Positions 1,098 to 16,192 of a stretch of 64,000 bases of DNA are shown one piece after another. How positions within the stretch are numbered: the stretch's first letter is position 1; each line of letters starts with the position of its first letter. The position numbers and the translations under genes are program-made. The notes beneath the pieces were generated by a model that did not search any database, was not told the origin of the DNA, and saw nothing but the letters and a program-made list of their open reading frames with translations. The stretch is from Phyllobacterium bourgognense. Its GTDB lineage: Bacteria; Pseudomonadota; Alphaproteobacteria; Rhizobiales; Rhizobiaceae. The stretch spans positions 248,001 through 312,000 of the forward strand of contig NZ_QPJM01000003.1 in the NCBI RefSeq assembly GCF_003337575.1. The letters are read 5' to 3'.

Positions 1098-1467
1098 GGC
1101 GTTCTTTGGCGACAAAGCGCGCACGTTTGCACTCACGCCGGAATTGATCATCGAACTTGAGCGCAAGACCGGCACCGGCATTGCAGCTTTTGTCGCCCGC
1201 TTCATGCGCGTTCCGATGGCGTTTCACTTCAACGATATCGTTGAAACAATTCGGCTGGGACTTATCGGCGGCGGCACCTCTCCGGAGGAAGCGCAAAGCC
1301 TAGTCAATGCTTACGTCACGCCGCGTCCTATCGCAGAAACACTTTCCCTCGCTATCGCTATTCTTGAGGCCGCTTGGTTCGGACCAGCGGCACCAACTGT
1401 CATAGCCCAGGACGATATTGGACATGCCGCCGCAATCGATGATGCGCTCAATCAGGTGGCACCATAA
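1087..1467 (+). CDS. GTA gp10-like / tail assembly chaperone family protein
   Basis: A 126-aa protein whose start (ATG at 1087, product begins MTHKAFFGDKARTF) overlaps the end of the portal gene. The pattern 'F..TPELI.ELE...G.GI.A...R' followed by a helical segment with 'IVETIRLGLIGGG' matches the gene transfer agent family/Phage_TAC_11 proteins, which are encoded between the major tail protein and the tape measure and assist tail assembly. Here it lies between portal and capsid, which is not its usual place. Its stop overlaps the next start (TAATG). An in-frame upstream ATG at 1018 lies inside the portal gene and is unlikely to be used. Confidence 0.75.
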   Translation: MTHKAFFGDKARTFALTPELIIELERKTGTGIAAFVARFMRVPMAFHFNDIVETIRLGLIGGGTSPEEAQSLVNAYVTPRPIAETLSLAIAILEAAWFGPAAPTVIAQDDIGHAAAIDDALNQVAP

Positions 1468-3008
1468 TGGATTTTCTCGAAACGAAAGCGGACTTCACCG
1501 TAACCGACGCTGGCGAGATCACTGGCATTGCATGGCCGTTTGGCTCGCCCGATCGTGTTGGCGACGTGATTGAAAAGGGATCGTTCACCGCTCCGGCCAA
1601 TTTGCCGATGCTCTTCGCGCACGATCAGTCACAAGTCATCGGCGTTTGGGACAGTATCACCGAAACAGCACAAGGCTTGATCGTCAAAGGTCGCCTTCTG
1701 GTCGATCAGATCGCTCGTGCCGCCGAAGTCCGCGCCATGATCAAAGCCAACGCAGCAACCGGCCTATCAATCGGTTTTGTCACCAAGCAGGCAAAAAGCC
1801 GCAAAGGCGGTGGCCGCACGATCAGCGCCCTCAATCTTCACGAAATCTCAGTTGTCGCGGTTCCGTGCCATCCGGCCGCGCAAATCACTTCAATAAAGGC
1901 CGCCGATGGCACGGCAACCGAAACCCATATGGAGCATTCTATGGACCCCGAACTTGTAAATGAAAATGAACAGACCGAAGCGAAGTCCGCTCCGGTTATC
2001 GACCAGAAGGCTTTTGAAGCAATGAAAGCCCGTCTGGATAAGCTGGAAGCCAAGAGCAACCGCCCGAAGGCTGATAACAACAACCATCCGGAAGCGTCGA
2101 ATGACAATGATGAACGTAAGGCGTTCACAGAATATCTGCGCACTGGTCGCGTGGAAGAGAAGGCACTTTCCTTTGGAGCACCGTCAACCGGGGGCATTCT
2201 GGCACCGGAAGAAACCGCGAGCACCATTCTGGAAAAGGCCGCCGAGTTCTCGCCTATCCGTTCGCTCGCCTCTTCTATCAGCATGTCCGGCCCGCTTTTG
2301 CAGCTCCCGCGCCTTGTTGATGAAGTCGATCCGGCTGAAGTAACCGAAACGGGCGCGCGCCCCGAGGATGAACCGACTTTCGAACAAATCGACCTCAAGC
2401 CCTTCGAAATGGCCGTCATTGTTCCCGTCACTCGCATTCTGCTTGAGGATGCGCAGATCGATCTTGAGGGCTACCTTGCAAGTCACGTCGCGCGCCGCTT
2501 CGGTCAGAAAGAGGCGGCTTGGTTTGTGAGCGGGAACGGCACGACGCAGGCTGAAGGTGTTTTGAAGTCGGCAGAAGTCGCAGCCCATGAAGTGGACACG
2601 ATCAACGCGGACGGTTTGATTGACCTGTTCTATTCGATCAAGACCGCCTATTCGGCGAACGGCAATTGGCTGATGAACCGCGCCACTATGGCAACGGTTC
2701 GCAAGCTGAAGGATACGGACGGCTCTTATCTCTGGCAGCCTTCCATCGCCGCTGGCGTTCCGCCTACGCTCCTTGGCCGTCCGGTCTATGAAGCCGTCGA
2801 TATGCCGAACGCAATCGCAGAAGCCACGCCAATCGTGTTCGGTGATTTCGCTTCCGGTTACACCATTGCTGACCGCGTAGGGTTCACCACGCTCCGTGAT
2901 GAGCTGACCGGTGCAGCAAACGGGATCATCAAGCTTCATGCGCGTCGCCGCGTGGGCGGTCGCGTAGTGCTCGGTGAAGCCCTCACAAAGCTGAAGATTG
3001 CCGCTTAA
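1467..3008 (+). CDS. Fused prohead protease - HK97 major capsid protein
   Basis: A single 513-aa frame joins two proteins that are usually separate. Residues 1-150 are an HK97-type prohead protease (peptidase U35): the expected triad is visible as H52 (MLFAHDQ), S101 (GLSIGF) and E126 (LHEISVV). Residues 155-215 are charged and Asn-rich, like a scaffold/delta domain. Residues 215-513 are the HK97-fold capsid protein ('GAPSTGGILAPEE', 'GNGTTQAEGVL', 'NWLMNRATMATVRKLKD'). In-frame ATGs at 1929 and 1941 could allow a separate capsid product, but neither has an obvious Shine-Dalgarno sequence. The protease would be expected to cut itself and the scaffold part away during maturation; the cut site is not identified. 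Confidence 0.93.
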   Translation: MDFLETKADFTVTDAGEITGIAWPFGSPDRVGDVIEKGSFTAPANLPMLFAHDQSQVIGVWDSITETAQGLIVKGRLLVDQIARAAEVRAMIKANAATGLSIGFVTKQAKSRKGGGRTISALNLHEISVVAVPCHPAAQITSIKAADGTATETHMEHSMDPELVNENEQTEAKSAPVIDQKAFEAMKARLDKLEAKSNRPKADNNNHPEASNDNDERKAFTEYLRTGRVEEKALSFGAPSTGGILAPEETASTILEKAAEFSPIRSLASSISMSGPLLQLPRLVDEVDPAEVTETGARPEDEPTFEQIDLKPFEMAVIVPVTRILLEDAQIDLEGYLASHVARRFGQKEAAWFVSGNGTTQAEGVLKSAEVAAHEVDTINADGLIDLFYSIKTAYSANGNWLMNRATMATVRKLKDTDGSYLWQPSIAAGVPPTLLGRPVYEAVDMPNAIAEATPIVFGDFASGYTIADRVGFTTLRDELTGAANGIIKLHARRRVGGRVVLGEALTKLKIAA

Positions 3009-3020
3009 GGAACCACGAAT

Positions 3021-3632
3021 ATGCGGCTCGTATCAGAAGCTATCATCCTCACAAATGACAACAGGCGCATTGAATTGCGCCCTTCGTTGCGAGCCGCATA
3101 TATCCTTCACGAAAAGCACCGCCTTGAAAATCTATGGAAAGGCGTGCTTGACGGCAATTTCACCATCATTAGCGATATCGTTGCGCATGGTGCAGATGAC
3201 CCCGTTGCCGCACGCGCCCTGTTAAATGACAAACTCGCTTCAGAAGGCATTGGCGCACTTGTCGCGATCTCCGACGACCTTCTGACATTCATCAATCTAT
3301 CATTCGGCTTGAACTATCAGACAGCGACCGCGCCATCACGCTCGACTGTTTCCAAATCCGGAAAGAACCAAACCTACCAAGAATCATTCAATGAGCTTTT
3401 TGGTTATGCGACCGGCTGGTTAGGCTGGACCCCTGAAACAGCGTGGAACAGCACACCGGCTGAAATCCGTATCGCGTTCGATGCCCATGTTGAGAAACTG
3501 AGGGCCATTCATGGAAGCACTGAAAAGCAATCTTCGACCTACGATCCTCTTGAGGAAGTATCGCCGGAAGACGTTAGTGCGGGAATTGCGAAGCTTCGTG
3601 CCAAGCATGGCAGTGTTGCGAGGGCCTCATAA
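3021..3632 (+). CDS. Putative tail assembly chaperone
   Basis: A 203-aa protein with ATG shortly after the capsid stop. Residues 1-100 resemble the GTA gp10-like fold (N-terminal 'LRPSLRAAYILHEKH', helical middle). A Ser/Lys-rich linker follows, then 'GYATGWLGWTPETAWNSTPA', which matches the GWTP.....TP.E signature of the short Phage_TAC_6 chaperones. It therefore looks like an upstream chaperone fused to its downstream partner. Such proteins bind the tape measure during tail assembly. The stop overlaps the HNH start. The family assignment rests on motif reading only. Confidence 0.6.
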   Translation: MRLVSEAIILTNDNRRIELRPSLRAAYILHEKHRLENLWKGVLDGNFTIISDIVAHGADDPVAARALLNDKLASEGIGALVAISDDLLTFINLSFGLNYQTATAPSRSTVSKSGKNQTYQESFNELFGYATGWLGWTPETAWNSTPAEIRIAFDAHVEKLRAIHGSTEKQSSTYDPLEEVSPEDVSAGIAKLRAKHGSVARAS

Positions 3633-3997
3633 TGGCTCGACCGCCCCGCCTTTGCTCATGCGGCAAGATCGTCGCGCATGGCGTGCGTTGCACCTGCCAA
3701 GCCAAGCAGGATCGTGAGCGTAAAGCACGCTTCGATCAGAAGCGCCCTAGCGCCCGCGCACGCGGCTATAATAATGAGTGGCAGAAAGCGCGCGCCGAAT
3801 ATCTCCGGCACCACCCTATTTGCAGATGTGGTGCAACCGCCCAATGCGTCGATCACATTCAACCGCATAAGGGCAATCAGCGCTTGTTCTGGAACCGCGC
3901 CAATTGGCAACCACTCTGCCTGCCATGCCACAACTCAATTAAGCAGCGTCAGGAGCGCAGCATCAACCCTGATTACCCGGCGAGGTGCGACCCATGA
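3632..3997 (+). CDS. Phage HNH endonuclease
   Basis: A 121-aa HNH nuclease. Its N-terminus has a zinc-ribbon-like set of cysteines (CSCGK...CTCQ). The catalytic core is 'ICRCGATAQCVDHIQPHKG' followed by 'LFWNRANWQPLCLPCHN', with the DH, N and H residues of the HNH motif and four metal-binding cysteines. Nucleases of this type are normally encoded beside the terminase genes of cos-packaging HK97-like phages and help terminase cut DNA. Here terminase lies 2 kb further on, after the connector genes. The start overlaps the preceding stop (TAATG). The last 35 bases overlap the 3' end of a reverse-strand gene. Confidence 0.9.
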   Translation: MARPPRLCSCGKIVAHGVRCTCQAKQDRERKARFDQKRPSARARGYNNEWQKARAEYLRHHPICRCGATAQCVDHIQPHKGNQRLFWNRANWQPLCLPCHNSIKQRQERSINPDYPARCDP

Positions 3998-4475
3998 AGC
4001 CTTCGATGAGCCATCCAACAACATTCACGCCGACCCAGACGGCTGCGGAAATGAATGGCATCCACATTACCGCAACTACCAAATCATCCAGCGGTGGCAG
4101 TCGATTGCCTGAATGTCGATACGCATACCAAGCTGGATACAGCAGTAACGAAATCAGTGAAATTCGAGTGACGCCTTCAATGCGATGGAGCTTGGCTGAC
4201 GGGTTGCTAGCGATCCACAGAAAGAGCGCTGCTGCAACGACAAAAAACGAAGAGAAGGCGAACATCGCCAAGAAAAACATAAGCAGAGCGCCGCCCAATC
4301 CACTCGGGTCCGGAAACGCCCACGCCACGAGGTCCCCAAACGGATTGTCCAAGACAATCTTGTATAGGACTCCCGACGTTTCACCGCTGGCAACGAGCCA
4401 AACGAAAAACATCACCGGTCCAGTCAAACAAGCCGCGATTAGCACCGCACGCCGTGTCCTTGAGTCAACTGCCAA
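3963..4475 (-). CDS. Reverse-strand membrane protein in the phage head region (moron candidate)
   Basis: A 170-aa protein of unknown function. It starts with TTG at 4475, preceded by a strong Shine-Dalgarno GGGAGGGG a few bases upstream, which decides the start. Four hydrophobic segments are visible at about residues 9-28, 58-90 (long, ending 'VVAAALFLWIA'), 104-120 and 133-157, so it is an integral membrane protein. All flanking phage genes run the other way and it interrupts the connector cluster, as expected for a moron expressed from the prophage. A plus-strand frame on the same DNA lacks any family features. Possible roles such as superinfection exclusion are inference only. Confidence 0.65.
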   Translation of the reverse strand: MAVDSRTRRAVLIAACLTGPVMFFVWLVASGETSGVLYKIVLDNPFGDLVAWAFPDPSGLGGALLMFFLAMFAFSSFFVVAAALFLWIASNPSAKLHRIEGVTRISLISLLLYPAWYAYRHSGNRLPPLDDLVVAVMWMPFISAAVWVGVNVVGWLIEGFMGRTSPGNQG

Positions 4476-4637
4476 TTTGCCCCTCCCGACGCTAGGTCTT
4501 CCCTACTCTACGTTGCACATCCGGCGGGGGGCATCAATAGAGTTTTACGCTATCGAGGGGACCGGCGCGGGGAGCACTTCGCAAGAGACGCCCGAAATAA
4601 CTTTTTCTGAAACCCCACCACGAAAGGCGATTTTGTA

Positions 4638-4928
4638 GTGAGTATCGTCACGACTTCACTGCTGAAAATGCAGCTTAATATCGATCATTCAGAGGATGAT
4701 GAGTTGCTTCAGCAGAAGCTAGAGGCCGCCGAAGCATGGATTGCCAACTACACCGGCACGCCCTGGACAGAATTTGACACGGTTCCAGCGGACCTGAAGG
4801 AAGGCGTCTTGCTGCTTGCCGGACACCTTTACGAGAACCGTGAAGCCACTCTTGTCGGCATTGACGCCCACGAATTGCCCTTCGGATTGCTGGATATGAT
4901 CCGGCCCTATCGGGAATGGGCGTTCTGA
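4638..4928 (+). CDS. Phage head-tail connector protein (gp6-like)
   Basis: A 96-aa protein starting with GTG. It carries the gp6-like DNA packaging/connector pattern: 'LKMQLNIDHSEDDELLQQKL' near the N-terminus, 'AAEAWIANYTG' in the middle, 'LKEGVLLLAGHLYENRE' and a C-terminal 'LLDMIRPYREW'. Proteins of this family form the ring below the portal that joins head and tail. It opens a run of four tightly spaced connector genes, with the next start two bases after this stop. Length is normal for the family. Confidence 0.88.
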   Translation: MSIVTTSLLKMQLNIDHSEDDELLQQKLEAAEAWIANYTGTPWTEFDTVPADLKEGVLLLAGHLYENREATLVGIDAHELPFGLLDMIRPYREWAF

Positions 4929-4929
4929 T

Positions 4930-5349
4930 ATGGCGAAATCCGAGCAATACAACCGTATCCAGCGCAAGGTTATGAGCCTTCCGAAAGCCTATCTTGAAGC
5001 CACCGTTCCGGCGCTTGAGAAATCCGCTGAAGAATTGGCAGATTTGCAGCGCCGTTTTGCGCCTGAAGATACCGGCGCGCTGAAGAATTCCATCGTCGTC
5101 ACCGGCCCGCACCAAGCGACACCGGCCTATTCGCAGCCGGGAGGATCGCGCGTTGCCGCTGACAATGAGGTGCTTGTGACTGCTGGAAACAGTGACGTTC
5201 GCTATGCGCACCTTGTCGAATACGGCACTGCTGAAGCTGAAGCTCAGTCTTTTTTCTGGCCCGCCTATCGCCTTCTGAAAAAGCGCATTGCGAACCGCGT
5301 CAATCGTGCCAGCCGAAAGGCGATCAAGGAAAGGCTCGCCCGTGATTGA
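4930..5349 (+). CDS. HK97 gp10-family head-tail protein
   Basis: A 139-aa protein of the HK97 gp10 family (tail completion/neck). Diagnostic stretches are 'FAPEDTGALKNSIVV' and 'VRYAHLVEYGTAEAEAQSFF', followed by a basic helical C-terminus, 'RKAIKERLA'. The gene follows the connector by one base, and its last bases overlap the GTG start of the next gene. The family is involved in closing the head and completing the tail; the exact structural position in this phage is inferred from homologues. Confidence 0.9.
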   Translation: MAKSEQYNRIQRKVMSLPKAYLEATVPALEKSAEELADLQRRFAPEDTGALKNSIVVTGPHQATPAYSQPGGSRVAADNEVLVTAGNSDVRYAHLVEYGTAEAEAQSFFWPAYRLLKKRIANRVNRASRKAIKERLARD

Positions 5350-5761
5350 GCCGTCTCTTGCCCTCCGCACGGCCATCCGTGCGCGCCTAATTGATGACAG
5401 CGCCGTGACCTCGCTTGTTTCCGCAACCTCGATCCTTGCCGGATCGTCGCGGCCCGAAACCTTGCCTTGCATCATGCTTGCCGACTCTCAAACCATCTTC
5501 CTTGGCCATACATCCGGCGCAGGATATGCCGCGCGGGTTTTCGTTGACGCTCATATTTGGGCTATCGAAGATGGAGAGGATACAGCTAAAGCCATCGGCT
5601 TTGCTGTCATGAACGCCTTGCGGGAAGTCCCCGACGCGGACGGCTTTACGATTGATGAGTTTGAAAAGCCCTCCATTCGATGGATGCGCGATCCCGATCC
5701 GGATAAGAACTATTGCCACGGCGTTCTGACATTCGAAGCCGTGATTCGGTGGAAGCTCTGA
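5342..5761 (+). CDS. DUF3168 tail completion protein
   Basis: A 139-aa protein starting with GTG at 5342, overlapping the end of the gp10-family gene. 'SLALRTAIRARLIDDSAV' at the N-terminus, 'ILAGSSRPETLPCIML' in the middle, and 'VRWKL'-like ending after a beta-rich segment (here 'FEAVIRWKL') are typical of DUF3168, the family of GTA gp8/tail terminator-like proteins. In related phages this gene directly precedes the major tail protein; here it is followed instead by the head-tail adaptor and then terminase. Confidence 0.85.
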   Translation: MIEPSLALRTAIRARLIDDSAVTSLVSATSILAGSSRPETLPCIMLADSQTIFLGHTSGAGYAARVFVDAHIWAIEDGEDTAKAIGFAVMNALREVPDADGFTIDEFEKPSIRWMRDPDPDKNYCHGVLTFEAVIRWKL

Positions 5762-5763
5762 TC

Positions 5764-6072
5764 ATGCGCGCCGGTAAGCTCGACAAGCGCATTGAACTCC
5801 AGCGGGAAACCCAGATCGTCAAACCTTCAGGTTCGGTCGTGAAAGAATGGCAGACATTCGCCACGATCCGCGCCGAAGTCGTGCAGCAATCTGCATCCGA
5901 ATATCTGACCGGCTTCGGTGAAGCGGAGACGAACACGGTCATATTCCGTATTCGTTACGTGGCTGACATCAGCACTGACGACCGCGTTTTCTATTCCGGT
6001 AAGCCTTACGACCTGAAGGAAATCAAGGAAATCGGACGGCGGCGCGGTCTCGAATTGAGGTGCGCGACGTGA
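5764..6072 (+). CDS. Phage head closure / head-tail adaptor protein
   Basis: A 102-aa protein of the head-tail joining family (PF05521). The start is ATG at 5764, giving MRAGKLDKRIELQRE; a longer frame from 5713 lies inside the upstream gene and has no family support. 'RIELQR', 'WQTFATIRAEV' and a C-terminal 'RVFYSGKPYDLKEIKEIGRRR' are the expected conserved parts. The protein seals the connector channel after packaging. It ends inside the start region of the small terminase gene, so translation is probably coupled. Confidence 0.88.
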   Translation: MRAGKLDKRIELQRETQIVKPSGSVVKEWQTFATIRAEVVQQSASEYLTGFGEAETNTVIFRIRYVADISTDDRVFYSGKPYDLKEIKEIGRRRGLELRCAT

Positions 6073-6458
6073 CACACCTACGCGGCGTGAAGCCCGCGCT
6101 CACGCGTGACCGCGATCCGCTTACTACAACGCCATCCGTTCCGAAATATTTCAACTCCTACGCCAAGGCTGAATGGAAGCGCGTAATGCCGCGCCTGATC
6201 GAAGATCGGATCATCACGAAAGCCGATCTTGGCGGCATTGAGGATTTTTGCGTTGCGCGCGGTCGTATCCGCGAAATTGAAAACCTGTTCCGCGTAGCAG
6301 GTGGAGCACCGGACAAGGTTCTCTTCGGCATGCAGAATCGCGCAATGCAAACCGCGCGACAGCTTGCGGCGGAATACGGCTTGTCGCCAACGTCACGCGC
6401 ACGCGTTCAGGGACAAACCGAAGAACAAGACGACGATAACCCCTTGGACGTTCGGTAA
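6069..6458 (+). CDS. Terminase small subunit (P27 family)
   Basis: A 129-aa protein of the P27-like small terminase family. 'AKAEWKRVMPRLIEDRIITK' and 'YGLSPTSRARV' are the diagnostic segments. The small subunit recognises phage DNA and regulates the large subunit. GTG at 6069 overlaps the preceding stop (GTGA) and has GAGG eight bases upstream, so it is preferred to the GTG at 6060. The position after the connector cluster is unusual: in HK97-like phages terminase precedes the portal. Confidence 0.88.
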   Translation: MTHLRGVKPALTRDRDPLTTTPSVPKYFNSYAKAEWKRVMPRLIEDRIITKADLGGIEDFCVARGRIREIENLFRVAGGAPDKVLFGMQNRAMQTARQLAAEYGLSPTSRARVQGQTEEQDDDNPLDVR

Positions 6459-8068
6459 TGAGCACGAGCGCCTACCCGGAATGGATTTTTGACGGTTCAC
6501 CGATTGCCGACCCTCTGGGATTTGGCGAGCGTGCCGTTAAATTCGTCCGGCTCTTGAGGCATCCGAAGAGCACGGCAACCGGTCAGGTTTTCCAACTTTA
6601 CGACTGGCAAGAGCGCATTATTCGCCGCATCTATGGCCCTCGCCATCCAGACGGCAGCCGAGTCGTTACCAAAGTGTTCTGGATGATTCCGCGCGGCAAT
6701 CGAAAGACTAGCCTAGCCGCTGCATTGTCGCTTCTGCATACCATTGGCCCCGAGCATGTTCCGGCTGGACAGGTGATTTTCGCCGCTTCAGATCGCGAGC
6801 AAGCCGGGATTGGCTTCAAAGAAGCCGCCGATATCATCCGGCAAGACAAGCGCCTGATCTCCGCAACGCGCATTTACGACGCTCATAACAGCGTAAAAAA
6901 GATCGTCTACAAGAAGAAAGGCGTTTCCCTGCAAACCGTTTCCAGTGACGGCGCGGCACAGCACGGCAAGACCCCGGCCTTCGTTCTGGTCGATGAAATC
7001 CACGCTTGGAAAGGCCGCGATCTTTGGGAAGCCCTGAAATCCGGATTGGTAAAGACGCCGAACACGCTAATGGTGATCGCCACGACCGCCGGACGCGGAC
7101 AAGAGAACCTAGGCTATCAGGAATACGAATACGCACGAAAAGTCGCGACCGGGGAAGTGGTTGATCCTTCCTATTTGCCGATCATCTTTGAAGCCGACGC
7201 CAAAGACGATTGGCAGGATGAGGCGCTTTGGCACCGCGTTAACCCCGGCTTGCAATATGGCTTCCCTGATCTTCCGTCTTTCCGCCGGGAAGCGCAGCAA
7301 GCCGAGCACCGGCCATCCGAGCGCCACGCATTCAAGCAACTGAATTTGAATATCTGGCAAGCCAACAGCCGCGATCCGCTCTTCGATATGGCCGTCTATG
7401 ATGAAGGCCGGTTTGATTTTGAGCTTGAAGAGCTAGCGGAATTGCCCTGCTATCTTGGCGTCGATTTGTCAGTGAACGGCGATTTGACCGCGGTAGTTGC
7501 GGCATGGCGGCATGAGGATGGCCGGATCACGGTTCACCCTTGGTTTTTCGTTCCCGGCGACGACCTTGCCGACCGCGCGGCGAAGGATAACGTTCCCTAC
7601 GTCGCTTGGAAGGAAGATGAGCTTATCAATGTCATTGATGGGCCGATCATCGAACCGGATGAAATCGAGAACCATATTCGCGAGCTATGCGCGACCTATA
7701 ACGTGCAGGAAATCGCGTTCGATCCGCATCTTGCGCGCAAGATCATGCAGCACCTTTTCGATGAAGGCTTGCCAACCATCGAAATGCGACAGGGACCGCT
7801 CACCATGGGACCGGCCATTGGCGATCTTGAGCGCACCGTGAACGGCTTCAAAATTCGCCACAACGGTCATGCCGTTCTGCGCCATCACTTTGATAGCGTT
7901 GTCGCATCCCGCAACGATACCGGCCTTGTCCGGATGCACAAGGCCGCGAACAACAATCGCATTGATGGCGCGGTCGCCGCTGCCATGGCCGTTAGCCGCG
8001 CATGTGCCGGTGAAACCAGTCAGTCCAAATACAATGACCCCGATAGCGGCGGCATTTTCACATTTTGA
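6458..8068 (+). CDS. Terminase large subunit
   Basis: A 536-aa packaging ATPase/nuclease. The P-loop variant 'PRGNRKTS' is at residues 78-85 and the Walker B 'FVLVDEIHAW' at 175-184 with D179/E180. The C-terminal RNase H-like nuclease begins at 'YLGVDLSVNGD' with an acidic metal ligand, and ends with 'NNNRIDGAVAAAMAV'. Length and layout are those of the phage terminase family with PF03354-like architecture. ATG overlaps the stop of the small subunit gene. It is followed ten bases later by the tape measure gene. Confidence 0.94.
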   Translation: MSTSAYPEWIFDGSPIADPLGFGERAVKFVRLLRHPKSTATGQVFQLYDWQERIIRRIYGPRHPDGSRVVTKVFWMIPRGNRKTSLAAALSLLHTIGPEHVPAGQVIFAASDREQAGIGFKEAADIIRQDKRLISATRIYDAHNSVKKIVYKKKGVSLQTVSSDGAAQHGKTPAFVLVDEIHAWKGRDLWEALKSGLVKTPNTLMVIATTAGRGQENLGYQEYEYARKVATGEVVDPSYLPIIFEADAKDDWQDEALWHRVNPGLQYGFPDLPSFRREAQQAEHRPSERHAFKQLNLNIWQANSRDPLFDMAVYDEGRFDFELEELAELPCYLGVDLSVNGDLTAVVAAWRHEDGRITVHPWFFVPGDDLADRAAKDNVPYVAWKEDELINVIDGPIIEPDEIENHIRELCATYNVQEIAFDPHLARKIMQHLFDEGLPTIEMRQGPLTMGPAIGDLERTVNGFKIRHNGHAVLRHHFDSVVASRNDTGLVRMHKAANNNRIDGAVAAAMAVSRACAGETSQSKYNDPDSGGIFTF

Positions 8069-8077
8069 GGAATCAGT

Positions 8078-10714
8078 ATGGCAACCGATGAAGAACGCCT
8101 AGTTATCGCCCTGGAGGCTCGTATCCGCGACTACGAGAAGAACATGGAACGTGCCATGCGTTCCGGCGGAAAGAGCTACGACGCGATGGAAGCTCGTGCC
8201 AAACAGTCAGCGCAACGGATGGAAAAATCGATGGCTGATGCTGGTAGCGGCATTAACAAACGTCTGGAAAGCCTATTCAAGCCGTTCATGGCGGGCGGTA
8301 TTGCAACGGCAGCTATCGCCGCAACCGCAACCGCCGTGACCCAGATTGCAGGCAGCATTGCGGAAGTAGACCGTGAAGCACGCAAGGCCGGCGTGTCGTC
8401 GCAAATCTGGCAGCAATGGTCATACGTCGCCAAAGCGACCGGTGCGACCATCGATGGCGTAACCGACGCCCTCAAGGAATTGAACATTCGCGGCGACGAA
8501 TTCGCCAAGACGGGCAAGGGTTCGGCTGAGGACGCGTTCAAACGCCTTGGCTATTCCGCCGCTGATGTTGGCGAGCGCTTACGTGATCCTAATCGCTTCC
8601 TTGATGAGATTATCCGGAAGCTTCAGCAATTGGACAGCGCCGGACAAACGCGTGTCTTAGATGAACTGTTTGGCGGAACCGGCGCAGAGCAGCTTGCCAA
8701 ATTCCTTGGCCTTTCCGTCGCGGAAATCCAGAAGCTTCGAAATGAGGCTGCGACCTTCAGCAACGAGCAGATCGAAGCTGCCAAGAAGATCGATGCTGAA
8801 TTCGAGACGCTTTGGCAGAACGTTCGCGTTTACGCCAAGAAAGCAGCAATCGAGTCTGTGAGTTATGCCGAAAAGATCGTCGCCACGATCAGCAAATTGA
8901 AAGGTGATGGCTATGTAGCTTCCGCCCGGGGCAATTTCTTGTCGGACGAAGCCACACTTGGCCGCGCTCTGGAGCGCCGTAGGAAGCTATTTGAAACCAT
9001 CGCGGCTATCGAAGCATCCGGTGAAAAAGGCCGCATGACCGCCTTGCCAAAACTCCGGCAGGACGTGGAAGCCCTCGACCGCGAAATCGATCAGCTTCAA
9101 AATGGCACCGTCGATATGGAAACGGCGATGCGCACCTTGTCGGAAGCAAGCCGGTCGCTTTCCAGCGGCTTTAGCGGCAACGTGACGGCAGCGACCAATT
9201 TCAAATCCGCCCTTGCTGACCTCAAGAAATTCATTCCGGAACTGAAAGCCGAGCTCGATACGCTCGCACAGAATGATGCGATCGACACCGCCTATCAGAA
9301 CGCGGTGAAGAATGCGCGCACCATGTCAGAAATCCGCGCGGCGACCGATACCGCAAATCGCGCCAAGTCCGCCGCGACCTTCGGAAGCCATAAGGATATG
9401 CTTTCCCTCATCGGCGCGGCGGAAGGCACTGACAAAGGCCGTGGTTATAACGAGACCCTAGATTATGGTCGCTGGACGGGCGGCGCGCGCAATCTGACCA
9501 GCATGACACTTACTGAAATCCTCGCGTTGCAAGATAGTATGCGGACGCCGGAGAACCGCGCACTTTACGGCAACGGCAAGGGATCATCCGCGCTAGGCCG
9601 CTACCAGATTACCAGCGGCACGCTTCGCGACGTGATGAGTCAGCTTGGTTTGACCGGCGACCGACTGTTTGATGAAAACACCCAGGACGAAATTGCACGC
9701 GCACTGATACGCCGTCGTGGCAATAATCCGGACGCCCTTCGCAACGAATGGGAGGGCTTGCGACGCGTTGATGACTCCACAATTCGTGAAGCCTACTCCG
9801 GCACACCGACTGCGCCACAGAAGCTTGAGAATACGCCCGCACAACAGAAGGCGGTCGATTTGGTCAAGCAGCAGGATGACGCCCGAAAGGGTCTCAACCT
9901 TTCAGTGCAAGAGGGCTTGGACCTCGCGAAATTCGAACAGTCCATCTCCGGCATGACGCAATCGCAGCAGCAAATCGAACTGGCAGTCTATCAGCGCCAA
10001 TTGGAAGCTCGCCGCGCCGGTATCACGCTTACGCCGCAAGAGCTCGCAGGCATCCGCGCCAAGATCACCGAAACGCAACGCTTGGACGATGCAACCGGAA
10101 AATCGCAAGAGCGCATGGAACAGATGAAGGATGCGCAGCAATTCATCGCGCAAGGCTTCACCGATGTTCTGACCGGCGTTCTTACTGGCGCGACAACGGC
10201 GGAACAGGCCGTGCAGCAGTTGCTATCCTCGTTGATCAGCGCCCTTGCTCAAGCAGCTTTGCTTGGCGAGGGACCGCTTGGCGGTTTGTTCGGAGGTGGC
10301 ACCGGCATTCTTGGCGCGATCTTTGGCTTTGCCAATGGCGGTTACACCGGCCCCGGAGGAAAGTATGAACCAGCTGGTGTCGTGCATCGCGGCGAATACG
10401 TTATGAGCCAGAAAGCAGTGAACTGGATTGGCCTTGAGAACCTTGAGCGCCTTCATCGTGGATATGCGGACGGCGGTTTGGTTGCGCCGAACCTTAGCCC
10501 GCCATCGTTGCCACGTCCGCAGCTTTCACGCGGATCACCGGTATATGCGCCGCAGTTCAACATGCCGGTGACGGTCAATGCCAACGGCGGAACACCTGAG
10601 CAAAACCGCGATCTTGCGCAACAGACAAGCCGTGAACTGAAGACCATGGTGAAAGCGGTAATGGCTGAAGAAATGCAGAACCAGCGCCGTCCCGGCGGCA
10701 TGTTGCGAAGATAA
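8078..10714 (+). CDS. Tail tape measure protein with embedded lysozyme-like domain
   Basis: An 878-aa protein with SD GAGGAA ahead of ATG. The N-terminal part is coiled coil with a hydrophobic segment near residues 70-95 and '[20 protein letters not shown]', usual in tape measures. Residues 439-575 form a muramidase-like domain: 'SLIGAAEGT', 'YNETLDYG', '[13 protein letters not shown]' and 'SSALGRYQI' fit the GH104/phage lysozyme-like fold, with E in 'AAEGT' as candidate acid. The C-terminus has the classic tape measure ending, '[20 protein letters not shown]' and 'HRGEYVM'. It sets tail length and probably opens peptidoglycan during entry. No tail-tip genes follow it. Confidence 0.93.
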
Positions 10715-10726
10715 TTCGAAAATCAC

Positions 10727-10756
10727 GAAGCACGCCGACTTCCAAACGCTATAACC
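10727..10756 (+). repeat. 30-bp direct repeat, copy 1
   Basis: GAAGCACGCCGAC, four variable bases (TTCC), then AAACGCTATAACC. The same two 13-bp arms at the same spacing occur at 12742-12771, 26 of 30 bases being identical. Copy 2 is the 3' coding end of a small gene (reading KHADNETL then stop); copy 1 would read KHADFQTL then stop, out of frame with the tape measure. It may be the leftover 3' end of a homologous gene or a recombination boundary. Confidence 0.85.
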
Positions 10757-10764
10757 AAAGAAAA

Positions 10765-10798
10765 CCCCGTGTGTGCTGGTTGAAGGACACATACGGGG
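10765..10798 (+). other. 11-bp stem-loop upstream of the HUH-like gene
   Basis: CCCCGTGTGTG (10765-10775) pairs with CACATACGGGG (10788-10798), eleven pairs with one G-T wobble and a 12-base loop. On the plus strand no T run follows, so it is not an ordinary plus-strand terminator. On the minus strand it is followed by TTTTCTTT and could end leftward transcription. Its place just before a possible rolling-circle initiator also allows an origin or attenuator role. Confidence 0.6.
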
Positions 10799-10835
10799 TC
10801 ATTGGCTTACTATTTCATCACGTGGAGTGACTAGA

Positions 10836-11747
10836 ATGTATTATAGCAAGACTTCGACGGCGTGCTTCGATATTCCGCACAAATCGCGGAAAAAAAGCGC
10901 ATCTCATCCCTTGCCGCGTTACCCGAATTCACCGCTCTTGGACGGTCGCATTCTTGAGATCATTGCGGAGCGCAATGGCGACGCACGACCGGTCAATATT
11001 GTGTCAAAATTCGGAGGCTCAAAACAGCCGAATGACGAGTCCGATCAAGACGTTATCCATGCTTCCGGCGAACCTTGTGCAGTAGCTCCACTTACACCAC
11101 GCCTCTCATCATCTCTCTCACCCTCCTGTTCACCTTCTACTAGACGCACTCATTCGCCCGTCACACGCTCGCGTTCACGGACCAAGACGTTGGAGAAAGC
11201 GGTCGCGCGGATGCCGAATCCTTATGTCAAACAGTGGCGTCACCTCTGGCAGCATGAAAAGCTCGCCGCGAGCTTCGAGGCTCTTGAACGCCGTGAAGGA
11301 TTGGCGTTCACGCTGAAGCTTTCTCCGGCTCGCGAGAAGATGCTCTTGAACCACGTCGAACCGGCGAACCAGATTGCGCGCTACATCGGCAAGGAAATGA
11401 CGAACGCCTTTAACGAGGTGCTTCCATATAGCTTCACCTTGGAATTCTCACCCTCCGGCGTATTGCACCTTCACGGTGCTATTCGGCCCTTTGATCGCTC
11501 AAAGACTCATATCGAGTCACTGAAGCGTGTTCTCATGCGTGCTGGCGGGAAGTGCTCCGGAAAGGTTGCTTCGCGCCAGTGCGTCCTCAAGAGTCTTACA
11601 GACGGCTTAGGATGGGCAGCATATCTGAACAAGGCTGGTAACGACGCAGCCGAGCGGCTCATGACGAACAAGGTCACGTTCATATCGAACAATCTTCGGA
11701 AGATCGCAGAGTGTGACCATCGTCAGTTCAGATCGACGATCTATTAA
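10836..11747 (+). CDS. Putative HUH-type replication initiator (Rep-like)
   Basis: A 303-aa protein. ATG at 10836 has GGAG eight bases upstream and is preferred to GTG at 10773, which lies in the stem-loop. Residues 85-118 are a Ser/Thr/Arg/Pro-rich linker. The C-terminal domain has 'FTLEFSPSGVLHLHGAIRPF': H211-L212-H213 fits the metal-binding HUH motif. 'GWAAYLNKAGN' follows, with Y263 and K266 as the possible nicking tyrosine and lysine. Such enzymes start rolling-circle replication in phages, plasmids and some transposable elements. I do not recognise a specific family; the call rests on motif spacing and the neighbouring hairpin and repeats. Confidence 0.55.
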   Translation: MYYSKTSTACFDIPHKSRKKSASHPLPRYPNSPLLDGRILEIIAERNGDARPVNIVSKFGGSKQPNDESDQDVIHASGEPCAVAPLTPRLSSSLSPSCSPSTRRTHSPVTRSRSRTKTLEKAVARMPNPYVKQWRHLWQHEKLAASFEALERREGLAFTLKLSPAREKMLLNHVEPANQIARYIGKEMTNAFNEVLPYSFTLEFSPSGVLHLHGAIRPFDRSKTHIESLKRVLMRAGGKCSGKVASRQCVLKSLTDGLGWAAYLNKAGNDAAERLMTNKVTFISNNLRKIAECDHRQFRSTIY

Positions 11748-11789
11748 CCGTTGAACGCCTTACAATATTCGATCAGGCCTTGTAGCGCG

Positions 11790-12245
11790 CTACATACCTG
11801 AATTCTCGCTTGAGAAGCTGTTGTTCATCATCTGATCGATTTCGTCGTCCAGCGGCGTGCGCTGCTCTTCGGCGGCGCTCAAGAACACTTTCAGCGCCTC
11901 CTCGATGAGCACATGATCCACGCTGTGAAGCGGGTAGAGCCGCCCATTGGTCTCGACTTCGGTCAGGAGATTGCCGAGAGCCAGGATAACGCCTGGAAGT
12001 GGCTTGATCTTTACACCTTCGGCGAGCGCTGCCGCTGCTACCGAAATCTTGTGCGGCCGCTGCCCGAACTTTCCGCTGAACAGATCAGGGCGATCTTTCC
12101 AGGCGATCGCAACCATGTTGTTCGCCATTTGCGCGCAATCGGCTGCAGGGTTTCCAAGTCCTGCTCGCAAGGAAATCTGAAGGAGGTTCTGCACCACGAC
12201 GGCAGCCTCGGACATTTTATAGGTATTCTTGATGGCCCCAAACAC
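11790..12245 (-). CDS. Hypothetical protein of the prophage control region
   Basis: An unrecognised protein, 151 aa from GTG at 12245 (GGAG seven bases upstream) or 175 aa from ATG at 12317 (no clear Shine-Dalgarno). It is mostly helical by eye: 'MSEAAVVVQNLLQISLRAGL', a central 'ISVAAAALAEGVKIKPLPGV', 'HSVDHVLIEEALKVFLSAAE', and an acidic tail rich in Asn and Ser. It runs opposite to its neighbours and diverges from the 77-aa gene across a region with a large palindrome, a layout common for phage regulators. No DNA-binding motif is evident, so a regulatory role is only inferred. Confidence 0.6.
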   Translation of the reverse strand: MFGAIKNTYKMSEAAVVVQNLLQISLRAGLGNPAADCAQMANNMVAIAWKDRPDLFSGKFGQRPHKISVAAAALAEGVKIKPLPGVILALGNLLTEVETNGRLYPLHSVDHVLIEEALKVFLSAAEEQRTPLDDEIDQMMNNSFSSENSGM

Positions 12246-12424
12246 TCTGTGTCTCCCATTTAAACTATGCTGGTTCCAAACGACCATATTTGGCGAGTAA
12301 ACTTCTTGCCCCTCCATGGCATCACTAAGTGCTTCGCAGGAGAATTGATATATCTATCACCGTAACCAGGACGTCTCGACAAAATGTCGCACCTTAAATC
12401 GAGTCCGATCAGTGGGTTAGCGAA

Positions 12425-13213: not shown

Positions 13214-13240
13214 AGACCGCTTCGGCGGTCTATTTTTATT
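13214..13240 (+). terminator. Intrinsic terminator
   Basis: AGACCGC (13214-13220), loop TTCG, GCGGTCT (13225-13231), then TATTTTTATT. A seven-pair stem with a stable UUCG loop and a T run. It ends the small phage gene transcript and separates it from the accessory operon that begins at 13283. Confidence 0.9.
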
Positions 13241-13282: not shown

Positions 13283-14260
13283 TTGAGTGAGGATTTCTCA
13301 AAATTACAAGCGATTTTTGTTCCGCATGAGTATCGTCGCCGTAATGACCTGTTAAATCTTGGCAAAAAACTCGTTCATTATACATCGGTAGCCAATGCTA
13401 TCTCGATCTTCCGCAAGAATGAAGTTTGGATGCGGAACGCTAGATGCATGAATGACTTTATGGAGGTCCAGCACGGCTTTCAGTTAATGCAAAGATTACT
13501 CGAACCGCCGGTCGACAACCAAGCTGAGAAGGGGTTACGGCAGTTGGGGATAGCCGTTGATGAGATATTTCCCGACACCGTGCAAGAAACCGTCGAGTTG
13601 TTCTCTGGATGGTCGCAACCGCTCATACACAATACCTACGTCACGTGCCTATCGGAACACGACCCCTCGGAGGACGACTATGGACGGCTGTCCATGTGGC
13701 GTTCATACACGTCCAATCAAGTTGGTGTCGGGCTAGTGATCAAACCATTGCCGCTCTATCTTTTAGCCGAAACATTCGGGGCATTTAGCAGCCCAGTCTA
13801 CTATGTTACCGAAGGCGACCTACACGGCATTTTTGTCGAAATCGCTCAAAACATTCGTGCCAATAGGACCTACCTCGCTTCGAAGGGTAAGGAGGAGTTG
13901 AAGGGCTGGTTATTCACGCTGCTTCGATCGATCGCAATGTGTTCAAAGCATCCCGGTTTTCACGAAGAGAAAGAATGGCGAATAATGCACACTCGAAAGC
14001 TGGATGAGCAGGGAACATTAATCCTTGATGTCGAGTGCCCAAACGGAATCGCCCAGCCGGTCTTCAAAATACCGCTGAAAGACCACGAACAAAGCGGGAT
14101 GACGGGTATTTCAATCCCGGAATTGCTGGATCGCGTAATTATAGGCCCCACACAGTTTCCGCTAGCCGTTTATGATGCCCTCGTTATTGAACTTGGAAAG
14201 GCAGGTGTAGCGGACCCCGAGAAAATAGTGACTTACTCCGCCATCCCACTGAGGACATAA
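13283..14260 (+). CDS. DUF2971 family protein (accessory operon gene 1)
   Basis: A 325-aa protein. TTG at 13283 has GGAGG five bases upstream and is preferred; a GTG at 13241 in the same frame abuts the terminator and has no Shine-Dalgarno. DUF2971 features are 'LVHYTSVANAISIF' (30-43), 'MRNARCMNDFMEV' (50-62), 'YVTCLSEH' (119-126), 'YGRLSMWRSYT' (133-143), 'VGVGLVI' and 'EEKEWRIM' (228-235). The HYTS, WR.Y and EKEWR residues are the likely active or binding site. DUF2971 genes are often found near phage-defence genes, but their activity is not established to my knowledge. The gene is richer in A+T than the structural genes. The next gene follows 11 bases later. Confidence 0.85.
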   Translation: MSEDFSKLQAIFVPHEYRRRNDLLNLGKKLVHYTSVANAISIFRKNEVWMRNARCMNDFMEVQHGFQLMQRLLEPPVDNQAEKGLRQLGIAVDEIFPDTVQETVELFSGWSQPLIHNTYVTCLSEHDPSEDDYGRLSMWRSYTSNQVGVGLVIKPLPLYLLAETFGAFSSPVYYVTEGDLHGIFVEIAQNIRANRTYLASKGKEELKGWLFTLLRSIAMCSKHPGFHEEKEWRIMHTRKLDEQGTLILDVECPNGIAQPVFKIPLKDHEQSGMTGISIPELLDRVIIGPTQFPLAVYDALVIELGKAGVADPEKIVTYSAIPLRT

Positions 14261-14271
14261 GGGATTATCTG

Positions 14272-14994
14272 ATGTCCGAGGAAAAACGATCGAACCAAGA
14301 GTCCTTGCCGGACTATGATGACTATCGAGAGCATCGCAATCTTTTAGATACTATTCGGCGCGAGCAGCGCTCCACCTTCGACAAACAGGTCTTGACCTTA
14401 TCGACGGCAGCCTTGGGCTTTTCCGTTGCGCTATTGTCGTTCTTCTACCAGAAATCTCCCGATTTAGAGCTTCGATTCATTGTTATCTCGTGGATAGCCT
14501 TCGTCCTGGCTATTTCGTTCAACCTGTTTTCTTATAATACTGCCGAACTCGCATTGAAGAGGGAAATAGATGATCTAGACCGGCAGATGGTGGGACAACA
14601 AAAGATATCAGAAGTAAATAGTTGGCAGAGGACAACCAGTATATTGAACACTTTGGTAGCCATCGCTTTCATTGTAGGCGCGGTTGGACTGCTGGGATTT
14701 GCCTACACCAACGCCGAAGCTGGCAAGTTGCAGCAACAGATATCTCAAACACCCTTCGACAACCTCGAACTGTCGAATACTCCTTCGTCTCCCTCGCGGT
14801 TACAGGGAGAAATGCGGAATTCAGGCTCAAACGATCCGGTCAAAAAGGATATGAACGATGCCTTTAAGGGGCCAATTGACAGTAATTCGGTTCCCACCGG
14901 AATGACAGCGCCTTCACAACCTGTGCCTCGACCGGCGATGCCGCAGGGACTGCCCAATCAATCAGATGCGCCAAAAGCAGATGACAAAAAGTAG
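14272..14994 (+). CDS. Three-helix membrane protein with proline-rich tail (accessory operon gene 2)
   Basis: A 240-aa protein with an acidic, charged N-terminus (1-38). Three hydrophobic helices lie at about 40-58, 68-87 and 124-145, separated by a charged amphipathic loop. A long polar tail (148-240) follows, ending 'GMTAPSQPVPRPAMPQGLPN' and then a KADDKK terminus. The helix layout resembles SLATT-type pore or sensor proteins, but the match is by eye only. The end of the tail shares a motif with the two microproteins encoded immediately downstream. The stop codon overlaps the Shine-Dalgarno sequence of the first of these, so the genes are one transcript. Confidence 0.8.
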   Translation: MSEEKRSNQESLPDYDDYREHRNLLDTIRREQRSTFDKQVLTLSTAALGFSVALLSFFYQKSPDLELRFIVISWIAFVLAISFNLFSYNTAELALKREIDDLDRQMVGQQKISEVNSWQRTTSILNTLVAIAFIVGAVGLLGFAYTNAEAGKLQQQISQTPFDNLELSNTPSSPSRLQGEMRNSGSNDPVKKDMNDAFKGPIDSNSVPTGMTAPSQPVPRPAMPQGLPNQSDAPKADDKK

Positions 14995-15003
14995 GAACAA
15001 TAG

Positions 15004-15120
15004 ATGAGCAAGCCAACTACGCCTGCACCGAGACCGTTTGGAGACGGAGTAACTTCGACGCGAATGCCTGTCCCAAGACCGCCTGCACCTTCATCCACGC
15101 CTAAACCCTCTCAAAAGTAA
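15004..15120 (+). CDS. Proline-rich microprotein, 38 aa (accessory operon gene 3)
   Basis: ATG at 15004 with AGGAA six bases upstream, overlapping the stop of the membrane protein gene. The product starts MSKPTTPAPRPFGDGVTSTR and ends in PSQK after 'MPVPRPPAPSSTPKP'. It has no hydrophobic stretch and is probably unstructured. The pattern G-V-T-S-x-x-x-P-V-P-R-P...K-P-x-x-K recurs in the next microprotein and in the tail of the preceding membrane protein, which supports it as a real gene despite its size. No known family. Confidence 0.6.
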   Translation: MSKPTTPAPRPFGDGVTSTRMPVPRPPAPSSTPKPSQK

Positions 15121-15146
15121 TCTAAATCGTCCAAAGGATGCCAAGA

Positions 15147-15269
15147 ATGACACAGAATGACCGACCGCGTCCCGGAGGTATCGAGCACAGCGGAATAACA
15201 TCTTCAGGCCGACCGGTTCAGCGACCAATTCAGCAGGACACAAGTGATAAGCCCGACAAGAAGAAGTAA
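15147..15269 (+). CDS. Proline/arginine-rich microprotein, 40 aa (accessory operon gene 4)
   Basis: ATG at 15147 with AAGGA eight bases upstream. The product starts MTQNDRPRPGGIEHSGITSS and ends KPDKKK after 'GRPVQRPIQQDTSD'. It aligns with the 38-aa protein (R-P-x-G, G-[VI]-T-S, P-V-[PQ]-R-P, K-P-x-x-K) and with the membrane protein tail. The HEPN gene starts inside its last 26 bases in another frame, implying coupled translation. Function unknown; a soluble mimic of the membrane protein tail is one idea. Confidence 0.6.
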   Translation: MTQNDRPRPGGIEHSGITSSGRPVQRPIQQDTSDKPDKKK

Positions 15270-16017
15270 TAATAGCCGCGCCTCATCTTCGGCGCCTCCT
15301 ACCAAGAAAAAGCGTGCTGTTCGCATAACCAAAAAGGAAGCGCTCAACCGCATTGACGACATGACTCAGCGTCTCGAGGACGATGTTAAAGCAGCACTTT
15401 GGATTGAAGCCGCAATGGAGGCTGCGAACGCGTTTGTAGTGAGTGACAAAGACAGACATTATCATGGCGCAGAGACATACAATGCGGTTGCTCAAAGTAT
15501 GATGCTCACCTTCGCAATCACAGTCGCCAGACTATTCGACCAAGGGGTAAAAAATAGGCACCCTAATAAGCGGGACGTATCATCGCTGCCACTATTCGTT
15601 CGACTTTTACGCCAGAAGCGATGCAGGAACGCTCTTATCGAACGAGCACGCCATTGGTCTCCAGCGCAGCTAGGCCGGGGAGCGATAAATGCGCGCGATT
15701 GTGAGAATGCTATAGATCGTGCGATTGGGGCCTATCACTCATTGTCAACCACGGGACATGGACGACACGCGGTCGCTCGCCTGAAACAGTTCCGTGACTA
15801 TCGGGTAGCGCATACGCTCATGAAAGCTCCGGCCCGCAAGCACCCTACATACAACAGCCTTTTCCTACTGGTTGATACTGCTCGAAACGTGATGCAAGCG
15901 GCAATCCTTGCCGTGAAGGGTCACGATCCAATGCTAGAATATTTCGAGCAAGACCATTCGAAAGAGGCAAAAAAGTTCTGGGAGACTGCTTTGAAAGGCG
16001 CAACGATTACCGACTGA
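15244..16017 (+). CDS. AbiU2-like HEPN protein (accessory operon gene 5)
   Basis: A 257-aa protein from GTG at 15244, with CAGGA six bases upstream, nested in the end of the 40-aa gene. After a basic Ser/Pro/Lys-rich start (1-35) it is all helical. It shows 'VSDKDRHYHGAETYNAVAQ' (66-84), 'ITVARLFDQ' and 'DVSSLPLFVRLL', the pattern of the AbiU2 HEPN domain. The segment 'FRDYRVAH' gives R184-x5-H190, the HEPN ribonuclease motif. Proteins with this domain include abortive-infection effectors that cut RNA. By position it is the likely effector of the operon; targets and control are unknown. Confidence 0.72.
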   Translation: MISPTRRSNNSRASSSAPPTKKKRAVRITKKEALNRIDDMTQRLEDDVKAALWIEAAMEAANAFVVSDKDRHYHGAETYNAVAQSMMLTFAITVARLFDQGVKNRHPNKRDVSSLPLFVRLLRQKRCRNALIERARHWSPAQLGRGAINARDCENAIDRAIGAYHSLSTTGHGRHAVARLKQFRDYRVAHTLMKAPARKHPTYNSLFLLVDTARNVMQAAILAVKGHDPMLEYFEQDHSKEAKKFWETALKGATITD

Positions 16018-16116
16018 CCGGCGCGAAGGTCATCATGCTACACTTGGAACGCACACAAAACTGCTACACAGCAGGGCAGGGCAGTCAACATAAGTTATTG
16101 ATTTTATTTTGAAAAA

Positions 16117-16192
<76 letters not shown>

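What the first reader, a model, noticed from the sequence alone, without database searches (positions are those of the whole stretch)
13283..16017. Five-gene accessory operon (DUF2971, membrane protein, two microproteins, AbiU2-like HEPN) between a phage terminator and a tRNA att site
Seen: a terminator at 13214-13240, then five same-strand genes with short gaps, stop/Shine-Dalgarno overlaps and one nested start, ending 100 bases from the tRNA-Val 3' end. The DNA reads richer in A+T than the phage structural genes. Known: HEPN proteins with R-x4-6-H are often RNases in abortive infection; DUF2971 genes recur near defence genes; cargo at prophage ends commonly encodes defence. Inference: a multi-gene anti-phage or toxin system with a membrane sensor or pore, an RNase effector and microprotein regulators. 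I know of no described system with this composition.
Basis: partly seen in the sequence, partly recalled or inferred. Interest (0 to 1): 0.82.

Follow-up and report, generated by a model that had tools for sequence, protein, structure and literature searches.

The report
Membrane protein with tail-copy microproteins
Next to a tRNA gene, an inserted phage-like element carries five genes that are not one conserved system, but two parts of it, a small membrane protein and tiny proline/lysine-rich proteins just after it, recur together in distant bacteria and may be an undescribed defence or toxin module.

Summary
The five ORFs are real: DUF2971, a three-TM protein (mem), two microproteins (38 and 43 aa) and an AbiU2-type HEPN protein overlapping the second by 26 nt. 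They lie just inside attR of an 18.1-kb element bounded by a 27-nt direct repeat at the tRNA-Val 3' end, with an integrase-like gene at the other end. The five are not a conserved unit: DUF2971 (8 of 8 loci opened) and HEPN (4 of 4) occur elsewhere without the others. What recurs is mem plus a hydrophilic microprotein directly downstream: 12 of 20 mem loci against 25 of 308 control genes (p 5e-8); with Pro+Lys at least 20%, 10 of 20 against 3 of 308 (p 1e-11) (cut-offs chosen after most cases were seen). Three further mem proteins carry a hydrophilic tail instead. The motif G-[VILM]-T-x4-P-V-x-[RN]-P occurs in the window's mem tail, mp1 and mp2 and in the microprotein of Nitratireductor luteus, whose pair sits beside the same 25-nt att core. 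No family was found for mem. Best reading: a mobile membrane-effector/microprotein conflict module beside an independent HEPN RNase. Function is untested.

The parts
13214..13231 (+). intrinsic-terminator-like stem-loop upstream of the cargo
   Evidence: consensus match only
13283..14260 (+). DUF2971 protein, 325 aa from TTG 13283 (ORF open from GTG 13241); without the other cargo genes elsewhere
   Evidence: Pfam E 2.5e-8, phrog_1762 E 4.2e-12; 63% identical copy in another viral contig
14272..14994 (+). mem: three-TM membrane protein, 240 aa, with a long hydrophilic C-tail that carries GMTAPSQPVPRP
   Evidence: no family in four libraries
15004..15120 (+). mp1: microprotein, 38 aa, carries GVTSTRMPVPRP
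15138..15269 (+). mp2: microprotein, 43 aa, carries GITSSGRPVQRP
15244..16017 (+). AbiU2-type HEPN protein, 257 aa from GTG, overlaps mp2 by 26 nt, R184-x5-H190
   Evidence: Pfam E 2e-11; alignment A10
16114..16140 (.). attR: 27-nt direct repeat, the other copy at G000:C3:246021-246047, outside the window
16117..16192 (-). tRNA-Val (TAC), integration target

Best explanation
The cargo is a cluster of separable parts. Its new part is a two-component module: mem, a three-TM membrane protein, and one or two small hydrophilic, mostly basic microproteins encoded directly downstream (disorder is judged from composition only). Proposed action (inference): mem is a latent membrane-disrupting or sensing effector; the microproteins, which in this lineage carry the same short motif as mem's own tail, compete with or clamp that tail and hold mem inactive; loss of the microprotein during infection, or element loss, releases mem. 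HEPN is an independent AbiU2-type RNase whose gene overlaps mp2, and DUF2971 an independent accessory gene. Shown: the pair recurs, the shared motif, the element and att site, the HEPN motif. Inferred: co-transcription, toxicity, inhibition, trigger and a role against phages.
For: Hydrophilic microORF directly after mem in 12 of 20 loci against 25 of 308 control genes, and 10 of 20 against 3 of 308 with Pro+Lys at least 0.2. In the 15 loci found after the idea was noted: 8 of 15 (7 without the doubtful arginine-rich L027) and 6 of 15, p 2e-5 (2e-4) and 3e-7; of the four whose downstream ORFs had not been seen before the rule was run (L066, L068, L069, L070), 2 pass both cuts. Hydrophilic tail on mem without separate microORF in three other loci. 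Motif shared by mem tail, mp1, mp2 and the Nitratireductor microprotein, 4 distinct hits in 1.13 million six-frame codons of held DNA. Motif duplicated inside four tails or microproteins, 0 of 400 shuffles each. Linked to integration: integrase and tRNA at L017/L033 and L037, identical 25-nt att core at L024.
Against: No function was tested. Positive charges favour N-in and an external C-tail in 14 of 14 three-TM members, whereas the microproteins show no hydrophobic signal segment and should stay in the cytoplasm, so tail and microprotein may not meet. 8 of 20 loci had no microORF passing the rule: three have tails, L019 misses the cut narrowly, four (L041, L049, L066, L070) are weak hits with none. 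The cut-offs were chosen after most of the sequences had been seen. Composition varies (L028 is Ser/Thr/Gln-rich). The motif regex was written after seeing its four matches. mp1, mp2 and the window mem tail show no significant internal repeat. Neighbours were not searched systematically for defence genes, and no known defence family was found next to mem in the few neighbours tested.
Confidence: 0.45

Rival explanations
1. One integrated five-gene anti-phage system: membrane sensor, microprotein regulators, HEPN effector, DUF2971.
For: One strand, short gaps and an mp2/HEPN overlap, so co-expression is likely.
Against: HEPN in 4 of 4 and DUF2971 in 8 of 8 opened loci lack the others; neither found by tblastn in 19 distinct mem loci.
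Confidence: 0.1
2. The pair acts not in defence but in element biology (entry or superinfection exclusion, conjugation): the membrane protein blocks entry of related elements and the microprotein tunes it.
For: Found near integrases, at the att site of a phage-like element, and between virB11 and virD4 of a plasmid.
Against: Also found in places where no mobile-element gene was recognised by eye in the 3.4 kb read (L025, L026, L040).
Confidence: 0.25
3. The microprotein is the active agent: a basic Pro-rich peptide that binds an internal target such as the ribosome, with mem as immunity or export protein.
For: Net charge +3 to +10 in 9 of the 12 free microproteins; PRP-type motifs recall insect Pro-rich peptides (recalled, no call).
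Against: Three free microproteins have net charge -1, -1 and +2; the five tails are neutral or acidic (0 to -12); no export or uptake evidence.
Confidence: 0.1
4. A spanin-like lysis pair (Rz/Rz1), since Rz1 is Pro-rich (recalled) and out-of-frame overlap occurs.
For: L039 and L069 microORFs overlap mem out of frame.
Against: 11 of 12 free microproteins have no Cys, so no lipobox; no hydrophobic signal segment by composition; mem has three TM segments.
Confidence: 0.03

Closest known systems
HEPN_AbiU2 (PF18734), AbiU2 of Lactococcus
   Same: Pfam match over nearly the whole domain, R-x5-H, gene on a mobile element
   Different: 25-42% identical to the homologues found here; overlaps a microprotein gene
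SLATT 2TM effectors (PF18160 and relatives)
   Same: small membrane protein; one homologue (L017) has a sub-threshold SLATT_5 match (E 0.0066), and the window protein a weak PADLOC RTasSLATT match (E 0.022)
   Different: below the cut-offs, three TM segments, paired with microproteins
Toxin-antitoxin pairs with a membrane toxin
   Same: two adjacent small genes often on mobile elements, one a membrane protein and one a small, mostly basic protein
   Different: microprotein is downstream and, in the window lineage, carries a motif of the membrane protein's own tail; toxicity not tested
DUF2971 (PF11185, phrog_1762)
   Same: full-domain match; found without the other cargo genes on plasmids and in viral contigs
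   Different: no function found: the one paper listed for the name is a genome re-annotation

Membership tests
HEPN_AbiU2 | profile match above the gathering score | tested here: met
   44.2 bits against 26.8
HEPN_AbiU2 | R-x4-6-H motif with a polar residue after R (passages of PMC3710099) | tested here: met
   R184-D-x4-H190; R and H invariant in 5 of 5
HEPN_AbiU2 | RNase activity and abortive infection | not testable with these tools
   needs an experiment
SLATT | SLATT profile match | tested here: not met
   no SLATT match for the window protein in Pfam or NCBIfam; L017 16.3 bits against 29.5
SLATT | two-TM topology | tested here: not met
   three hydrophobic segments in 14 of 16 members; L010 shows two and L048 four at the threshold used
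Known anti-phage system (PADLOC) | a convincing PADLOC match to any of the five proteins | tested here: not met
   only two weak matches (E 0.02), both to mem
Toxin-antitoxin pair | two-gene co-occurrence, with mobile-element context | tested here: met
   12 of 20 mem loci; integrase, att core or plasmid context seen in the window, L024, L033, L037 and L010
Toxin-antitoxin pair | toxicity of one gene neutralised by the other | not testable with these tools
   needs an experiment
Rz/Rz1 spanin | microprotein with lipoprotein signal | tested here: not met
   11 of 12 free microproteins lack Cys; no signal predictor was run

The most novel reading that the evidence does not exclude
An undescribed, scattered family of membrane-effector modules regulated by microproteins that are free copies of the effector's own tail motif (tail mimicry), carried as cargo at the att ends of integrative elements in Alpha- and other Proteobacteria and overlooked because the microproteins are too short to annotate.
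Probability: 0.3. Interest if true: 0.8.

Novelty: new variant of a known kind. Interest (0 to 1): 0.58.

Why it matters
If the pair is a conflict module, it adds a membrane effector outside the four family libraries searched, with a regulator class (36-61 aa microproteins) that annotation tends to skip. Tail-motif sharing between effector and microprotein would be an unusual and directly testable way of control.

Tried and rejected
Rejected: the five genes as one conserved system; spanin; SLATT membership; frameshift fusion of mem and microprotein (starts, spacing and an ATGA overlap look like ordinary coupling; judged by eye). DUF2971 as an ADP-ribosyltransferase was a recalled idea; the AlphaFold2 model was poor (mean pLDDT 54), the fold search could not be placed and a profile search of PDB sequences gave only chance-level matches, so it is left open. 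The PDB profile searches for HEPN and mem likewise gave only chance-level matches. tblastn for mem or its relatives: plasmids gave only the Acuticoccus record, phages nothing; for HEPN one plasmid and no phage. Near search of phage records with the element DNA: no match. Viral-contig scans for mem gave the identical contig, nothing and one weak piece, L059, without a clear ORF. The one genome-contig scan gave only Nitratireductor luteus.

Rows dropped before counting mem loci: L018 (spurious, a 446-aa ORF of another kind), L071 (a short match with two stops), L020/L035 (G274, E 9e-4, 759-aa frame, not examined) and L059. L015 and L024 are the same place as L009, and other loci are repeat or longer fetches of counted places. 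The 20 counted loci include weak hits (L019, L027, L041, L049, L066, L068, L069, L070; E between 1e-8 and 1e-3 in the searches that gave them). The first control was crude and had mem loci among the controls; one search replaces it. Controls are ORFs of 125 aa or more from 25 fetched loci including the window and its left flank; six of the 20 mem loci contribute no control genes.

Literature: 7 searches, listings only (15 of 641 papers listed), plus passages of PMC3710099. No listed title or abstract start described such a pair; this covers only that library and those terms.

Full report
Observation. Pfam finds DUF2971 (E 2.5e-8) and HEPN_AbiU2 (E 2e-11); the membrane protein has only sub-threshold matches and the microproteins none. 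PADLOC gives two weak matches, both to the membrane protein. HEPN begins at a GTG inside the second microprotein gene, 26 nt before its end. The operon is A+T-richer than the phage genes (49.8% against 55.5% G+C). No promoter-like site was found just upstream, so co-transcription is inferred from spacing.

Element. A 25-nt piece of the tRNA-Val 3' end occurs twice in the held genome; the match extends to 27 nt and bounds an 18,093-bp element. A 534-aa integrase-like ORF (DUF6538 above its Pfam cut-off; integrase SAM-like domain just below it) lies just inside the left repeat. Inside the window the element encodes portal, a protease-major head protein, HNH, connectors, large terminase and tape measure. 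The five-gene cargo lies just inside attR.

Five genes are not one unit. HEPN homologues were found in four loci: L012 (tape-measure-like and resolvase-like ORFs nearby, by eye), L013/L005 (beside ThsB-TIR and SIR2 genes), a Mesorhizobium ciceri plasmid (L011) and L014; none shows the other four genes. DUF2971 matched 12 plasmid records; the six opened have no partner, apart from a chance-level HEPN piece in L054 (E 0.24). Two viral-contig copies (one 63% identical) are alone by reading of the ORF lists. HEPN and DUF2971 were sought by tblastn (E up to 0.01) in 19 distinct mem loci besides the window, 13 with 7-13 kb and 6 with 1.8-3.4 kb, and not found. This test is blunt: the same search re-found mem itself in only 10 of the 19, so distant HEPN proteins could be missed.

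The conserved pair. Both genes are rare: in the family draw 4 of 199 genomes had HEPN and 2 of 199 had mem, own genome included. mem or its profile matched 5 of 385 genomes of the class (of which L018 is spurious and one was not examined), 5 of 397 of the phylum, 6 of 204 in the class of G661, 1 of 3 and 3 of 118 in two families, and 8 of 279 of the own class (one a broken fragment); each count includes the centre genome. After the first four relatives (L009, L010, L017, L019) each showed a small Pro- or Lys-rich ORF directly downstream, the idea was noted and checked on loci found later. With one rule for all (same strand, ATG, start -160 to +60 nt from the mem stop, 28-70 aa, at most 20% strongly hydrophobic residues), 12 of 20 mem loci pass against 25 of 308 control genes (p 4.8e-8); adding Pro+Lys of at least 0.2 gives 10 of 20 against 3 of 308 (p 1.4e-11). 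The rule was set after most cases had been seen. In the 15 later loci: 8 of 15 and 6 of 15, p 2.0e-5 and 2.6e-7; without the arginine-rich, doubtful L027, 7 of 15, p 1.8e-4. In the four loci whose downstream ORFs had not been looked at before, 2 pass (L068, L069) and 2 do not (L066, L070). L019's microORF fails the hydrophobic cut narrowly (0.22). L025, L026 and L048 have no separate ORF but a long hydrophilic tail on mem. No translation evidence exists.

Tail motif. In the window, mem's tail has GMTAPSQPVPRP, mp1 GVTSTRMPVPRP and mp2 GITSSGRPVQRP; the microprotein of Nitratireductor luteus (mem 38% identical over 153 aa) has GLTLTTTPVPNP, and its mem tail a looser form. The pattern matches nowhere else in 1.13 million six-frame codons of held DNA, though it was written after seeing these four. 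Other members show a motif duplicated within one chain: L017, L025, L026 and L038 (0 of 400 shuffles), L048 (2), L010 (5), L037 (13), L069 (13, a proline run); mp1, mp2, the window and L009 mem tails, the L009, L028, L039, L040 and L068 microproteins do not.

Mobility. The Nitratireductor pair lies about 120 nt from an exact copy of the same 25-nt att core; L017/L033 lies beside an integrase and about 1 kb from a tRNA-Asp/tRNA-Val pair, L037 beside an integrase and tRNA-Arg; L010 lies between virB11 and virD4 on a plasmid, where the listed features skip the microprotein (that gene table is incomplete).

Mechanism and doubts. mem has three hydrophobic segments in 14 of 16 members; K/R counts near the segments favour N-in, C-out in those 14. 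That puts tails outside and microproteins inside the cytoplasm, the main unsolved point. The favoured reading is a latent membrane effector restrained by its microprotein; exclusion of related elements is the chief rival. HEPN keeps R184-x5-H190 in 5 of 5 aligned proteins and most likely acts as an AbiU2-type RNase on its own. Direct proof needs experiments.

Noticed in passing
window 1-12300 and G000:C3:246021-248000: The 18.1-kb element has head, packaging and tape-measure genes and an integrase-like gene; none of the ten window ORFs searched in PHROGs was a replication or tail-fibre gene, and the only lysis match was part of the tape-measure protein. It may be a defective prophage or a capsid-forming satellite; not all ORFs were searched.
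   Followed up: partly
L025 364-825: A gene upstream of mem in G661 has an IRNKLAH (R-x4-H) HEPN-like motif, seen by eye, but no Pfam match; possibly a second HEPN-mem neighbourhood.
   Followed up: partly
L040 1474-2125: mem and its microprotein sit between genes that read as gatA and gatB (recognised by eye).
   Followed up: no
L069 (G523): MicroORF with an uninterrupted run of about 17 prolines overlapping mem out of frame; such runs should stall ribosomes without EF-P (recalled).
   Followed up: no
L005/L013: AbiU2-like HEPN gene divergent from a ThsB-TIR + SIR2 pair, a Thoeris-like setting.
   Followed up: partly
L062 585-1007: Own-genome control gene followed by a 40-aa Lys-rich microORF, one of the three control hits.
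   Followed up: no
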